Of a stretch of 64,000 nucleotides of DNA, positions 36,149 through 39,959 are shown one piece after another. The stretch spans positions 1,343,896 to 1,407,895 of the forward strand of contig WGMB01000003.1 of NCBI GenBank assembly GCA_016125275.1, written 5' to 3'. The notes under the pieces are model-generated. The model ran no database searches. It was not told where the DNA came from and saw only the letters and a program-made list of their open reading frames with translations. The number at the start of each line of letters is the position of its first letter. Positions within the stretch are counted from its first letter, which is position 1. The DNA is from Acidobacteriota bacterium. GTDB taxonomy: Bacteria; Acidobacteriota; Terriglobia; Bryobacterales; UBA6623. A program made the translations under genes and the position numbers.

Positions 36149-37387
36149 GTGACGGCGCGAATCCCTTTTCTTTTGGTCGCCGCCTTCCTCTCGGCGACGC
36201 CGCTGGCCGCTCAAACGTTCTCGGAAACCTTCGACGGCGGCCACAGCCCCACCGCTCCCGGTCCGCCCCTGCCGTGGAATTCCGCCGACTGGGACGTCCA
36301 GACGCACGTCCGCTCCGCCCAAGAGAAACTCGGGGCGCTCGACCCGCACGACGCCGACCATGGACCGGCCTGCGAGGCGCCGGGCGAGGACGGCTCGGTC
36401 ACCCATCCGGTCGAACGCATTGAGGACGCGGTCTACCAGTGCGCCAACCACGTGATGACGTCGTTCCGGGCCGACGACTACGGCCTGATCGCGCTCACGC
36501 CGCCGGCTCTGGCGGATTTCTCCCAGGGCGAGGCGACCATCGAGTTTGACATCAGCTCGTGGAGCGACAGCGCCCGCGACTGGTTCGGCGTGGTCCTGCA
36601 GCCGTTCGACGACCAGTTGCCGCTGCCCGTGGTGGAGTGGCTGCCGGACCTCAACGGCTTCGGCCGCCGCGCCCTGCACTTCGACTTCGGCGGCGGCGTG
36701 ATCTGTCCGGTGGTCTACCGCGACTTCGAGGCCGCCGAGGGGGGAGACAAGTTCGCCGGGGACTGCCGCTGGTGGGATTCCTGGGACGGCTACTTCGAGC
36801 CCTCGGCGATGGCGCGCCGCACGATCCGCATCACGGTTTCTCGCACCCGCGTGCGGGTGGAGATGCCCGAGGTCGGCTTGGTCTGGGCGGACATGAGCGT
36901 CGCCGACCTGGGTTGGGATCAGGCCGTGGTGAGCTTAGTGCACCACAGCTATACGCCGTTCAAGGACGGCAACGGCGGCCCCAACACCTGGCACTGGGAC
37001 GACGTGTCGATCGAGCCGGCGCGGCCGTTGACGATTCTGCAAGCGCAGCGGCGCTGGGCCAACGCGGACGGCGAGGCGTTCGTGTTTCCGAGCGGGGCCC
37101 CGGCCGGCGCGATGCTGCGCGGCAGCGCCATCGGGACGCGGCTGGAGCTGTCGTTCGACGCCGGCCTGAGCTGGCAGACTGCGGCCCGGCAGCCCTCGCA
37201 GAAAGATTCGCCGGTGTGGCAGTTCCTGCATCCCGTCCCGACGGGCGCCCGCGAGGTGCGGGTTCGCTCCGGCGGCGTCTATCCGGACTGGTGGTCCGGG
37301 GGCTGGATCGCCAAGGACCTGAGTCTGCTGGCCGTGGAACCGCCGCGCGGCATCCGGCCGAGCCGCAGCCGGAGGCGCTCCCGCTAG
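36149..37387 (+). CDS. Exported protein of unknown function (412 aa)
   Basis: Not recognised. A Sec signal (RIPFLLVAAFLSATPLAAQ) is followed by FSETFDGG and a beta-rich region with a lectin-like flavour (ATIEFDISSWSDSARDWFGVVLQPF, NTWHWDDVSIEPA, and later RLELSFDAGLSWQTA). It recalls concanavalin-like jelly-roll folds used to bind sugars. Four cysteines are present. The tail is Arg/Ser-rich. The GTG start at 36149 has one of the best Shine-Dalgarno sequences in the window (AAAAGGAGGAG, 8 nt spacing), and TAGACT at 36105-36110 may be its -10. This suggests high translation. Confidence 0.65.
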   Translation: MTARIPFLLVAAFLSATPLAAQTFSETFDGGHSPTAPGPPLPWNSADWDVQTHVRSAQEKLGALDPHDADHGPACEAPGEDGSVTHPVERIEDAVYQCANHVMTSFRADDYGLIALTPPALADFSQGEATIEFDISSWSDSARDWFGVVLQPFDDQLPLPVVEWLPDLNGFGRRALHFDFGGGVICPVVYRDFEAAEGGDKFAGDCRWWDSWDGYFEPSAMARRTIRITVSRTRVRVEMPEVGLVWADMSVADLGWDQAVVSLVHHSYTPFKDGNGGPNTWHWDDVSIEPARPLTILQAQRRWANADGEAFVFPSGAPAGAMLRGSAIGTRLELSFDAGLSWQTAARQPSQKDSPVWQFLHPVPTGAREVRVRSGGVYPDWWSGGWIAKDLSLLAVEPPRGIRPSRSRRRSR

Positions 37388-37395
37388 GGGACGCG

Positions 37396-37983
37396 CTATC
37401 GCACACAACGGTAGACGAAGGCGGGCGGCAAGTTGCGCCACACGACCGGCGAATAGCGCACCCGCGTAAAGCTGCGATGCAGCCGCTCGCGAAAGCGATG
37501 CGCGCTGGGCAGGCACAAGCCGTGGGCGTACGCGAACGTCACAAAGCGTCCGCCGGGCCGCAACACTGAGCAGGTCGCCTCCAGCAGCCGGGTCTGCTCG
37601 CGCGAGCCGAAGGCCGCCCAGGGCAGCCCGCTCACCACGACGTCCGCCTGCGGCAGCCCCAGCTCGCTGAGCAGCGCGGGCGCCCGCTCCACCGAGCACT
37701 CGTGGAGCTCCAGTTTGGGGTGGGAGCGGCGCAGCCGTTCGGCGAACTCCGGGTTGACCTCCAGGCTCAGCAGCCGGGAACTCTCGCCCTTCTCCTCCAT
37801 CAGCTTGCGGGTGAACGAGCCCGTTCCCGGGCCGTACTCCACGATCAAGCCGGCCTCCCGCAGGTTCAGCCCGTGCGTGATGGCGGCGGCCAAATGCCGG
37901 GAGCTGGGCGCGATGGCGCCGGTGACGGTCGGCTTGCGCAGGAACTCGCGCAGAAAAACGTAGGAGTCGGTGGATGAAGTCAT
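37396..37983 (-). CDS. SAM-dependent methyltransferase, PmtA/KsgA-like
   Basis: A 195-residue class I methyltransferase. The SAM-binding segment is VEYGPGTGSFT (about 48-58), then LLSLEVNPEF and the NPPF-like SGLPWAAF. The order and the N-terminal phrase VTGAIAPSSRHLA match the small group that includes phospholipid N-methyltransferases (PmtA) and rRNA-dimethylase-like proteins. Lipid methylation is the more likely role. The ATG at 37983 is used; a TTG at 38013 is in frame. It lies 65 bp downstream of the TIR gene on the same strand and could be co-transcribed with it. Confidence 0.72.
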   Translation of the reverse strand: MTSSTDSYVFLREFLRKPTVTGAIAPSSRHLAAAITHGLNLREAGLIVEYGPGTGSFTRKLMEEKGESSRLLSLEVNPEFAERLRRSHPKLELHECSVERAPALLSELGLPQADVVVSGLPWAAFGSREQTRLLEATCSVLRPGGRFVTFAYAHGLCLPSAHRFRERLHRSFTRVRYSPVVWRNLPPAFVYRCVR

Positions 37984-38048
37984 GTCGGCCGGCTCTACCA
38001 GTACGAATCGCAAAGACCGAATGTTCCCGGTCTCGCCAGGAGATGCGG

Positions 38049-39959
38049 CTACTGCGACGGTCTCTGGCGCAAAACGTGCAGTTGCCTGCGGGCGCTGTCG
38101 GCTTCCTCCACCAGACGGCGGCTCTCGACGCCGGTGGTCAGGCGGCTGCGGTTGAGCAGATCGTCGCTGAGCCGTTCCAGCACCACCGCGCGGTCCGCCG
38201 TCGGCAGCAGCGGATTGACGGCGGCGGAGCGTTGCGCGTCAATGGCTGCGTCGAGCAGTTGCGGCGCCTCGCTCGGCGCAACGAGCTGCGAACGGGTGGA
38301 TAGGGCCGCGGCCTTGGCGACCTCGGTTTCGGCGCGCTCGGCCTCGCGCCCAAAACGCTCGTATTTCTTGGCCGCCTGGTCATAGCTCCGCGAGGCCTCG
38401 TCGAGCAGCCGGGCCTTGTCCTCCGGCGGGGCCTCCTTCGCCACGGCGGTCACGGCGCCCGCGAAATTGCGCTGGATCTCCGGCGCCTGAGAGACCGACA
38501 GCGCCGCGCCGAAGGAAGCCATGGCGCCCTCGGCGTCACCCTGCGCCTGCAAGGCCTCGCCGCGCCGGTTCTGCAGATCGGCGAAGGCGTACGGACGCTG
38601 CTTCGGGTCGATGGCCGCCAGCGCCTTGTCGTACGCCGCCTGGGCCTTTCCGAGCTCGCCGGCGTTCTTCCAGGCGTCGCCGGCTTCGGTCCAGGCTTTG
38701 ATCGACTCGAACAGCCGCGCGGCTTCGGCGAAGTCGCCGCGGCCGGCCGCCGCCAGGGCCTGTTGCTTGACGTCGGGGCTCTCGGAGGCCAGCTCGAGCG
38801 TGCCGCTGTTGCCGTCGAAGATCCCTTGCAGCCATTGGATCGGCCCAGGCGAGGCGTTGACCTCGGCCGGGGCGGGCGGCGCGATGTCCTGCGGCGTCGC
38901 CGACAGTTGCCGCAGCTTGGTCTGCACCGCTTGGGCGTCCACGCCGCGCTCCAGCGACCAGCGCTCCACGTAGTTCGCAAAGGGCGTCTGCCCGGCGGGC
39001 GCTCCCGGCGGCAGGGCGCGGGATTCCTCCAGCGCGGCGGACACCAGCCCGGACAGCGAGGCGTCGCTCAAGAAGTCCGGCGACCCCTTCGGCCGCAGTT
39101 CCACATCGAAGGCTTCGCGCGCGGGCAACGCGATCTTGCCGTTCATCGGCTGGTAGAGGACATAGTCGTCCAGCAGCACGCCGATGGTGACGCGGTCGCC
39201 CGGCCCCAGCCCCGCAGGCAGGCTGAACGTGGCCGCCCCGAAGGAGTTGGTGTCGCGCTCCTGGTCGGCCTCGAACAGAAACGTCTTCGCGCCGGAGGCC
39301 GGAACGCCGGACTCGGGGGGCTTGCGCAGCACGCGCAGGCTCAGCCGGTCGTCCGGCGGCTCGGGCCACAGCGCCCAGCCGGCGGTCAGCGCGATGGCCA
39401 CCAGGGCCAGAGCGATGATGCGCCGGCTCCACCCGCCGCCGTCGTCCACGTGGATGTGAATCTCCTCGCTGCCGTCGAGCAGCGGACGCAGCATCTCGAG
39501 GGCGCGCTGCACGGAGGGCTCGGACTCCCTCTCGAGCTCGGCGAAGACCTTCTCCTTGCGGGGCGCCTTGGGCTCGGGCGGCTCGATTCCCAGCAGATCA
39601 GCGGCCAGGCGGGCTGCACCGCCGTCGAAATCCTTCTGCAAGGAGATGCCATGCCGCGAGCGCAGTGAAGCGGGCAGCTTGGTCTTATCGAGGAAGCAGG
39701 ACAGCACCGGCCGTCCCAGAGCCAGCGCCGTCGTCCACTCCAGGGTCACGAAGTCGGACTGCTCGGCGCTCCGCGACCACAGCAGCACCACGCCCTCGCG
39801 CCCCTCGATCGCCTCGCCCAAACGCTTGGGCCACAGGTCGCCGGCACGCAAGTCGCCCTCGTCGCGCCAAACGTCCACGCCTTGGGAGGAGAGAGCGGCT
39901 TCCAGGCGTTTGGCGGCGTCGAGATCCTCGTGCGAATAGCTGAGGAAGACGGATTTCAT
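38049..39959 (-). CDS. TIR-domain protein with membrane helix and TPR-like C-terminus
   Basis: A 636-residue protein. The N-terminal TIR domain begins MKSVFLSYSHED and includes the loop RDEGDLRAGD. Glu74, in SDFVTLEWTTAL, aligns with the catalytic glutamate of NAD-cleaving TIR domains. After a charged linker a membrane helix (IIALALVAIALTAGWALW, residues about 181-198) crosses the membrane, followed by a beta-rich extracytoplasmic part. TPR-like helical repeats (about 400-560, for example EAARLFESIKAWTEAGDAW and AQAAYDKALAAI) extend to the C-terminus. A cytosolic TIR controlled by an outside sensor is the inferred design. A TAGAAT box (39975-39980) lies 15 nt before the start. Confidence 0.82.
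   Translation of the reverse strand: MKSVFLSYSHEDLDAAKRLEAALSSQGVDVWRDEGDLRAGDLWPKRLGEAIEGREGVVLLWSRSAEQSDFVTLEWTTALALGRPVLSCFLDKTKLPASLRSRHGISLQKDFDGGAARLAADLLGIEPPEPKAPRKEKVFAELERESEPSVQRALEMLRPLLDGSEEIHIHVDDGGGWSRRIIALALVAIALTAGWALWPEPPDDRLSLRVLRKPPESGVPASGAKTFLFEADQERDTNSFGAATFSLPAGLGPGDRVTIGVLLDDYVLYQPMNGKIALPAREAFDVELRPKGSPDFLSDASLSGLVSAALEESRALPPGAPAGQTPFANYVERWSLERGVDAQAVQTKLRQLSATPQDIAPPAPAEVNASPGPIQWLQGIFDGNSGTLELASESPDVKQQALAAAGRGDFAEAARLFESIKAWTEAGDAWKNAGELGKAQAAYDKALAAIDPKQRPYAFADLQNRRGEALQAQGDAEGAMASFGAALSVSQAPEIQRNFAGAVTAVAKEAPPEDKARLLDEASRSYDQAAKKYERFGREAERAETEVAKAAALSTRSQLVAPSEAPQLLDAAIDAQRSAAVNPLLPTADRAVVLERLSDDLLNRSRLTTGVESRRLVEEADSARRQLHVLRQRPSQ

What the first reader, a model, noticed from the sequence alone, without database searches (positions are those of the whole stretch)
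38049..39959. TIR-TM-TPR protein with a conserved catalytic-type glutamate
The protein joins an N-terminal TIR domain, a single membrane helix at about 181-198 and a TPR-like C-terminal part. The TIR glutamate (Glu74 in SDFVTLEWTTAL) is kept, so NAD cleavage is possible. A membrane-spanning TIR with an outside repeat domain suggests sensing of an envelope event and local NAD depletion or signal production. A PmtA-like methyltransferase gene follows on the same strand, 65 bp away, and could be co-regulated. I do not know a described system of this exact composition.
Basis: partly seen in the sequence, partly recalled or inferred. Interest (0 to 1): 0.52.

Follow-up and report, generated by a model that had tools for sequence, protein, structure and literature searches.

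The report
Fused membrane TIR receptor with sensor
This bacterial protein looks like a one-piece version of a two-gene receptor in which an outside sensor, a membrane anchor and an inside immune-type enzyme domain work together, a pairing found in several bacterial phyla.

Summary
In detail: window 38049-39959 (-) encodes 636 aa with an N-terminal TIR domain, one membrane helix (181-199) and a TPR-like C-terminus; Glu74 aligns with the SARM1 catalytic glutamate. Relatives from six phyla form a two-gene unit: gene 1 = TIR-linker-TM-Ig (about 310 aa), gene 2 = N-terminal hydrophobic (signal-peptide-like) segment, Ig, conserved helical domain, TPRs; the genes overlap by 4 bp in 12 of 22 pairs measured. 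HMMs built without the window match residues 1-162 (gene 1, E 1e-42) and 206-353 (gene 2, E 2.5e-18): the window protein is a natural fusion of both, which supports a periplasmic C-terminus. In 148 Nitrospirota genomes gene 2 occurs in 6, always next to gene 1. In KSB1 the TIR can be replaced by a CHAT protease domain beside the same receptor and gene 2. I find no description of this pair in the papers searched. Most likely: envelope sensing, then TIR clustering and NAD+ cleavage or signal production. Sensing, catalysis and immunity are inferred, not shown. The PmtA-like neighbour is not a partner in the relatives examined.

The parts
38049..39959 (-). 636-aa fused receptor gene (TIR - linker - membrane helix - Ig-like - helical domain - TPR)
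   Evidence: ORF; Pfam; gene-1 and gene-2 HMMs built without the window; AlphaFold model, pLDDT 75
39609..39950 (-). TIR domain, residues 4-117
   Evidence: TIR_2 E 1.8e-19; structure match Z about 17 to TRR-2 and SPARTA TIRs, about 15 to SARM1
39738..39740 (-). Glu74 codon, position of the catalytic glutamate of SARM1-type TIRs
   Evidence: invariant in A3; present in 28 of 28 relatives (25 by motif, 3 by eye); aligned with SARM1 KEI
39444..39608 (-). helical linker, residues 118-172, ending in EEIHIHVDDGG, like the VQGNVYQA.GDIHIHN motif of many relatives
   Evidence: alignment; gene-1 HMM match 1-162, envelope to 172
39363..39419 (-). membrane helix, residues 181-199, N-in by the positive-inside rule
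   Evidence: may derive from the gene-2 signal peptide, with which it aligns
39075..39344 (-). carboxypeptidase-regulatory/transthyretin-like Ig domain, residues 206-295, of gene-2 type
   Evidence: 40.8 bits with the gene-2 Ig HMM against 8.6 bits with the gene-1 Ig HMM; Foldseek hit 5aq0, E 0.024, probability 1.00
38901..39074 (-). conserved helical domain of gene 2, residues 296-353
   Evidence: A4 alignment; gene-2 HMM match 206-353
38487..38789 (-). TPR-like region, residues 391-491
   Evidence: TPR_2/TPR_8 below cut-off; second gene-2 HMM stretch at 391-418
38052..38486 (-). C-terminal alpha-helical tail, residues 492-636, no family assigned
   Evidence: helices in the model
37396..38013 (-). 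PmtA/OlsG-like methyltransferase: neighbour, not shown to be part of the system
   Evidence: NCBIfam OlsG 104 bits (cut-off 350), PmtA 57 bits (cut-off 250)

Best explanation
The protein is a single-chain (fused) form of a two-gene transmembrane receptor. In the usual form gene 1 makes a cytosolic TIR joined by a linker to one inner-membrane helix and a small periplasmic Ig-like domain, and gene 2 makes an exported Ig-helical-TPR sensor. In the window, TIR plus linker of gene 1 is joined directly to the Ig-helical-TPR part of gene 2, whose signal peptide probably became the membrane anchor. Proposed action: the periplasmic TPR part binds a protein ligand or registers an envelope disturbance; this brings receptors together so that cytosolic TIRs pair and cleave NAD+ or make a nucleotide signal, stopping growth or killing the cell. 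Shown by sequence: domain make-up, the fusion, gene pairing, kept Glu, effector exchange TIR/CHAT. Inferred: topology (from the N-terminal hydrophobic segments of gene 2 and positive-inside), ligand sensing, NAD+ cleavage, immune role.
For: HMMs made without the window: gene 1 hits residues 1-162 (E 1e-42), gene 2 hits 206-353 and 391-418 (72 bits, E 2.5e-18, both at Z = 1e6); the window Ig is of gene-2 type. The window TIR lies in a 29-row set at 98/96 support with 22 TIR-TM-Ig rows. Pairing: gene 2 follows gene 1 in 15 of the 22 best loci; in 148 Nitrospirota genomes gene 2 in 6, gene 1 in the same 6 plus one broken fragment (Fisher 5e-10, ignoring phylogeny). All 12 genomes newly found by gene 2 with more than a partial Ig match have a TM-Ig gene before it, one of them by a weak match. 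Of 22 pairs measured, 12 overlap by 4 bp and 5 by 1 bp (counts). 23 of 23 gene-2 proteins checked start with a hydrophobic segment. Glu kept. CHAT replaces TIR in 4 KSB1 loci: 3 over the Pfam cut-off, 1 cut by its contig end and just below it.
Against: No second genome carries the fused form: with the window's C-terminal half alone, 1 of 60 relatives gave only a weak match. The neighbours of the relatives scanned are mostly housekeeping or metabolic genes. L097 has gene 1 but no gene 2 was found in its genome, nor in that of L079, the nearest TIR in the tree, whose gene 1 is cut by a contig end. In Pseudomonadota (249) and Bacteroidota (296) the only clear gene-2 hits are the seed genomes themselves. 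A kept Glu does not prove NAD cleavage. PADLOC matches cover only the TIR or CHAT part; gene 2 has none. Support inside the TIR clade is weak (117 columns, bootstrap not settled).
Confidence: 0.6

Rival explanations
1. Same receptor, but the TIR is a non-catalytic assembly domain: on periplasmic sensing it recruits cytosolic partners, and the output is an ordinary envelope-stress or developmental response rather than NAD loss.
For: Structure matches include signalling TIRs (TRR-2, MyD88) as strongly as SARM1 and SPARTA; related TIRs are fused to Ser/Thr kinases in Acidobacteriota; scanned neighbours are mostly not defence genes.
Against: The SARM1-type Glu is kept in 28 of 28 relatives, and TIR is exchanged for CHAT protease, with His and Cys motifs kept in the 3 checked, which points to an enzymatic output.
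Confidence: 0.2
2. The window protein is a chance fusion left by a deletion, on its way to decay, with no present function.
Against: 636 codons stay open with GC3 0.889, as in five neighbours (0.888-0.940); Glu, linker, hydrophobic anchor and gene-2 domain are all kept.
Confidence: 0.08
3. The gene works with the downstream PmtA-like methyltransferase in membrane-lipid adjustment.
For: Same strand, 65 nt apart.
Against: Of 32 relative loci searched with the PmtA-like protein, one (L086) gave a weak 21% match; the PmtA-like gene has its own 32-41% homologues in 7 of 20 relatives, and none of those 7 genomes gave a full-length receptor match.
Confidence: 0.04

Closest known systems
Animal Toll-like and IL-1 receptors (passages of PMC7075850 read)
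   Same: One membrane helix, cytosolic TIR, outside recognition part; IL-1R family members carry outside Ig-like domains.
   Different: Order is reversed (TIR first), the Ig domain is transthyretin/carboxypeptidase-regulatory type, sensing repeats are TPR, and in the relatives the sensor is a separate exported protein. Analogy only.
Thoeris and other TIR NADase systems (ThsB, TIR-SAVED, SPARTA; SARM1 as eukaryotic NADase)
   Same: TIR fold and SARM1-type glutamate.
   Different: No ThsA, SAVED or Argonaute partner among the proteins scanned; the TIR is tied to a membrane receptor and a periplasmic sensor.
[quoted passage not shown] 2020, PMC7159879, section 33 read)
   Same: Two-gene, membrane-linked, exchangeable effector domains.
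   Different: There the 5' gene is the EACC1 TM domain and the 3' gene often starts with a caspase; here the 5' gene is TIR/CHAT-TM-Ig and the 3' gene is exported Ig-TPR.
Zorya (PMC11890865: search listing and start of abstract only; envelope-sensing role recalled)
   Same: Proposed principle: envelope event outside, effector inside.
   Different: Unrelated proteins (ZorA/ZorB).
Acidobacteriota TIR - Ser/Thr kinase - TM - TPR proteins (L081, L075 here)
   Same: Same TIR plus linker, then TM and TPRs.
   Different: A kinase lies between linker and membrane; no gene 2 was found in the genomes of L080, L081 and L084.

Membership tests
Two-gene TIR-TM-Ig / exported Ig-TPR receptor family (defined here) | gene-1 TIR plus linker | tested here: met
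   HMM without window, residues 1-162, E 1e-42; tree 98/96
Two-gene TIR-TM-Ig / exported Ig-TPR receptor family (defined here) | gene-2 Ig plus helical domain and TPR | tested here: met
   HMM without window, 206-353 and 391-418, 72 bits
Two-gene TIR-TM-Ig / exported Ig-TPR receptor family (defined here) | two adjacent genes | tested here: not met
   In the window both parts are one ORF; it is a fused relative, not a two-gene member
NAD-cleaving TIR (SARM1/AbTir type) | TIR fold | tested here: met
   best SARM1 TIR rows Z 14.9-15.7, rmsd 2.2-2.7, 120-122 residues aligned
NAD-cleaving TIR (SARM1/AbTir type) | catalytic glutamate | tested here: met
   Glu74; profile aligns it with SARM1 KEI
NAD-cleaving TIR (SARM1/AbTir type) | NAD+ cleavage | not testable with these tools
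   needs an enzyme assay
Thoeris | ThsA effector encoded next to the TIR | tested here: not met
   none in the four neighbours scanned, both adjacent genes included; type III ThcB4 model 24.6 bits against a cut-off of 220
Toll/IL-1 receptor | LRR or Ig-superfamily ectodomain - TM - TIR order | tested here: not met
   TIR is N-terminal; ectodomain is carboxypeptidase-regulatory/TTR plus TPR
EACC1 two-gene system | EACC1 gene followed by a caspase gene | tested here: inconclusive
   no caspase second gene and no EACC1 hit in the Pfam scans of relatives; whether Pfam holds an EACC1 model is recalled, not checked
PmtA/OlsG lipid methyltransferase (neighbour) | curated NCBIfam cut-off | tested here: not met
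   57 and 104 bits against 250 and 350

The most novel reading that the evidence does not exclude
A patchily spread family of bacterial transmembrane immune receptors: an exported TPR sensor in the periplasm talks through Ig-like domains to an inner-membrane receptor whose cytosolic effector is exchangeable (TIR or CHAT). It would let a diderm cell detect phage attack or other envelope assault from outside the cytoplasm and trigger NAD loss or proteolysis inside; the window protein is its one-chain fusion, a bacterial counterpart in layout of TLR/IL-1R.
Probability: 0.42. Interest if true: 0.85.

Novelty: new variant of a known kind. Interest (0 to 1): 0.62.

Why it matters
The TIR defence systems I can name sense inside the cell (recalled). 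A receptor that carries TIR or CHAT across the inner membrane, paired with an exported TPR sensor, would give bacteria outside-in immune signalling, and the fusion names the two partners of the pair. It makes a testable prediction: gene-1 and gene-2 proteins bind each other in the periplasm, and together they control NAD+.

Tried and rejected
The first genome-contig scan with the full protein found no relative; the second, with a five-member TIR-linker alignment, gave 77 loci. The single-sequence AlphaFold model was poor (pLDDT 49) and was not used; the model with 13 relatives has alignment support only over residues 1 to about 300. The window's C-terminal half searched alone gave one weak match in 60 relatives. 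The long gene upstream of the TIR-kinase of L075 was compared with the CHAT-TPR-S gene upstream of gene 1 in L090: unrelated. No relative of the window protein in 50,697 phage records; in plasmids two TIR-only hits for gene 1 and none for the N-terminal part of one gene 2. Plain Pfam TPR evidence was too weak to define the C-terminus; the gene-2 HMM settled it.

Rows dropped and limits: in Bacteroidota, 5 of 6 gene-2 hits (G695, G710, G718, G832, G888; E 8e-6 to 8e-8) match at most 64 of 176 positions and were not inspected. Genome first-look caps (for example 12 or 28 candidates scored) mean distant copies can be missed. A4, the gene-2 search profile, contains the window row, so its hit on the window genome is circular; the HMM is the independent test. 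The pairwise gene-2 E-values are for a set of 21 sequences. The Fisher value ignores phylogeny. The tree was built once, on 76 TIR rows; its bootstrap had not settled. The window Ig was aligned to gene-1 Ig domains in A3 before the gene-2 origin was known. VIA-align rows for the Ig and TPR parts were crowded out by TIR hits; that absence is not evidence. Foldseek gave no match at E 0.001 or better. The start codon of gene 2 in L085 is uncertain. No SignalP-type predictor was available: signal peptides rest on hydrophobicity of the first 32 residues, in 23 gene-2 proteins (those of L089, L092, L162 and L187 were not in that check).

Literature: 10 searches; passages read in PMC10907252, PMC7159879 (and its section 33 whole), PMC8195603, PMC7075850; PMC11890865 seen only in the listing. 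None of what I read describes the pair; subscription papers and preprints were not searchable.

Full report
What is there. The ORF at 38049..39959 (-) is 636 aa. Pfam finds TIR_2 at residues 4-117 (E 1.8e-19) and weak TPRs, below cut-off, at 421-491. A single hydrophobic helix lies at 181-199, preceded by Arg-Arg. An AlphaFold model from the window protein and 13 relatives has mean pLDDT 75: in blocks of ten residues the TIR scores 76-96, the beta domain (205-290) 63-84, and the helices at about 400-632 score 70-95. Structure comparison gives Z about 17 to TIRs such as TRR-2 and SPARTA and about 15 to SARM1; the beta domain matches the transthyretin-like domain of carboxypeptidase D (5aq0, Foldseek probability 1.00, E 0.024). 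Glu74 aligns with the SARM1 'KEI' glutamate.

The relatives. A protein search in 100 genomes (own included) found mostly TIR-only matches; one (G044, the same locus as L097) runs through the helix: a 279-aa TIR-linker-TM-Ig protein. A wider scan with a TIR-linker alignment found 77 loci. Of the 22 best (L079-L100), most encode an approximately 310-aa protein TIR - linker, often with a VQGNVYQA.GDIHIHN motif - TM - carboxypeptidase-regulatory Ig, in Nitrospira, Nitrosomonas, KSB1, Syntrophales, Cyclobacterium and Flammeovirgaceae. Others put the same TIR plus linker before a Ser/Thr kinase with TM and TPR (L081; L080 is cut by its contig end and L084 has a run of unknown bases; L075 came) or before NACHT (L091).

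The partner. Clustering the neighbouring ORFs showed that 15 of the 22 loci have a homologous second gene after gene 1. Of the other 7, L079 is cut by its contig end and no gene 2 was found in its genome, L080, L081 and L084 are kinase forms, L091 is the NACHT form, L095 has a shortened gene 1 with a gene 2 elsewhere in its genome, and L097 has no gene 2 in its genome. Gene 2 encodes an N-terminal hydrophobic segment, an Ig domain, a conserved helical domain and TPRs. Of 22 pairs measured, 12 overlap by 4 bp and 5 by 1 bp; the rest range from a 20-bp overlap to a 39-nt gap; two more, L187 and L162, have gaps of 89 and 235 nt. 23 of 23 gene-2 proteins checked begin with a hydrophobic segment. 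Gene-2 TPR arrays can be 150-bp tandem repeats (L087: 13.8 copies, 72% matches; L098: 5.4 copies, 88%), unlike the window gene.

The window protein is a fusion. Window residues 199-469 align with the gene-2 protein of L083 at E 4.9e-13 in a set of 21 sequences. HMMs made from 12 gene-1 and 12 gene-2 proteins without the window hit residues 1-162 (E 1e-42) and 206-353 plus 391-418 (72 bits, E 2.5e-18; Z = 1e6). The window Ig scores 40.8 bits with the gene-2 Ig model and 8.6 bits with the gene-1 Ig model. The best of 2000 shuffles reach 4.7 and 6.3 bits. The window's helix aligns with gene-2 signal peptides, so the simplest history is loss of gene 1's TM-Ig and gene 2's start, leaving the former signal peptide as the anchor; this last step is inference. 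The window TIR falls in a 29-row set (22 TIR-TM-Ig, 4 kinase, 1 NACHT, the window, 1 stray) with 98/96 support, though the forks inside are weak.

Co-occurrence. In 148 Nitrospirota genomes gene 2 is found in 6 and gene 1 in the same 6 plus one broken fragment. Of these six, four were read gene by gene (L186-L189) and two are seed genomes (L092, L093), and all have gene 1 next to gene 2. Across the 22 seed genomes gene 2 is found in 16. Spread in sampled genomes, seeds included: 3 of 347 Acidobacteriota (the window itself, G124, G174), 1 clear of 296 Bacteroidota (the seed; 5 partial hits dropped), 1 of 249 Pseudomonadota (the seed), 8 of 82 in KSB1's phylum, 2 of them seeds. The 12 genomes newly found by gene 2 beyond partial Ig matches (G124, G174, G610, G615, G646, G650, G1246, G1283, G1237, G1259, G1282, G1229) all have a TM-Ig gene upstream: 5 with TIR, 4 with CHAT (3 over the Pfam cut-off; G1237 is cut by the contig end and scores 22.7 against 24), 3 without a recognised effector. 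In G1229 the TM-Ig match is weak (E 4.5e-4) and Pfam finds nothing. By eye, the effectorless protein of G1283 begins like the CHAT protein of G1282, as if CHAT had been deleted. The TIR of G174 lies outside the 29-row clade, so a TIR may have been gained more than once.

How it most likely works. The TIR is cytosolic, the Ig-TPR part periplasmic. TPRs bind proteins or peptides (general knowledge). The exchange of TIR for CHAT, both known death or immune effectors (general knowledge), on one receptor-sensor frame argues that the frame carries a signal inward to an enzyme. I therefore propose ligand- or damage-driven clustering and NAD+ cleavage or signal production. Not shown: ligand, catalysis, benefit. 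Against a defence role: most of the 27 neighbour proteins scanned with Pfam are ordinary or unknown (amidohydrolase, MacB/FtsX permease, gyrase B, ABC ATPase, MlaA and others). Conflict-type neighbours do occur: a CHAT-TPR-S gene in Nitrosomonas L090, PIN in L188, and two more CHAT genes and a TIR-FGE gene in L218.

Comparison with the known. In print I found TIR surveys, Thoeris-type systems, the EACC1 membrane two-gene system and ternary conflict systems, but not this pair (searches listed under Tried and rejected). The layout resembles TLR and IL-1R, but the order and ectodomain type differ, so it is an analogy.

Verdict. New variant of a known kind, of good interest.

Noticed in passing
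L218 7536-8591, L222 2129-3754, L221 831-2498 (L220 1-780 cut by contig end): In KSB1 the TIR of gene 1 is replaced by a CHAT protease domain (His and Cys motifs seen in the first three), followed by the same gene 2.
   Followed up: yes
L162 3410-14883 and 15119-15871; L219 6914-7462; L223 4867-5271: Gene 2 behind a TM-Ig protein with no recognisable effector; in G124 four tandem gene-2 copies follow one TM-Ig-Ig gene.
   Followed up: partly
L163 6023-6949 and 2123-5983: A TIR-TM-Ig plus gene-2 pair in another Acidobacteriota family whose TIR lies outside the main TIR clade, suggesting separate TIR gain.
   Followed up: partly
L090 1438-6945: Gene just upstream of the Nitrosomonas pair carries DUF7379, LCAT/hydrolase, CHAT and TPR-S domains: conflict-type neighbour.
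   Followed up: partly
L218 1-1556 and 12351-13433: Near the CHAT-form pair lie two further CHAT genes and a TIR-FGE-sulfatase gene, a conflict-rich neighbourhood.
   Followed up: partly
L081 2882-5449, L075 6631-10017 (L080 and L084 incomplete); L091 7001-9910: The same TIR plus linker fused to a Ser/Thr kinase-TM-TPR protein (Acidobacteriota) or to NACHT with several TM helices (Nitrospira).
   Followed up: partly
L087 8968-11038; L098 6610-7419: Gene-2 TPR arrays are 150-bp tandem repeats with 72% and 88% matches, suggesting ongoing repeat turnover in the sensor.
   Followed up: partly
L089, L092, L095, L099: Gene 1 is shortened or frame-broken in these four loci; real decay or assembly error cannot be told apart.
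   Followed up: no
window genome G000, 14 places: The window's genome holds 14 TIR_2 matches in varied proteins, several in large open frames.
   Followed up: no
window 36149-37387 (+): About 411-aa protein with a signal-peptide-like N-terminus that matched no Pfam, NCBIfam or PADLOC family at the limits used.
   Followed up: no
window 37396-38013 (-): The PmtA-like protein also matches the methyltransferase part of PADLOC's mad2 model (59 bits, residues 34-189), probably a general methyltransferase likeness.
   Followed up: no
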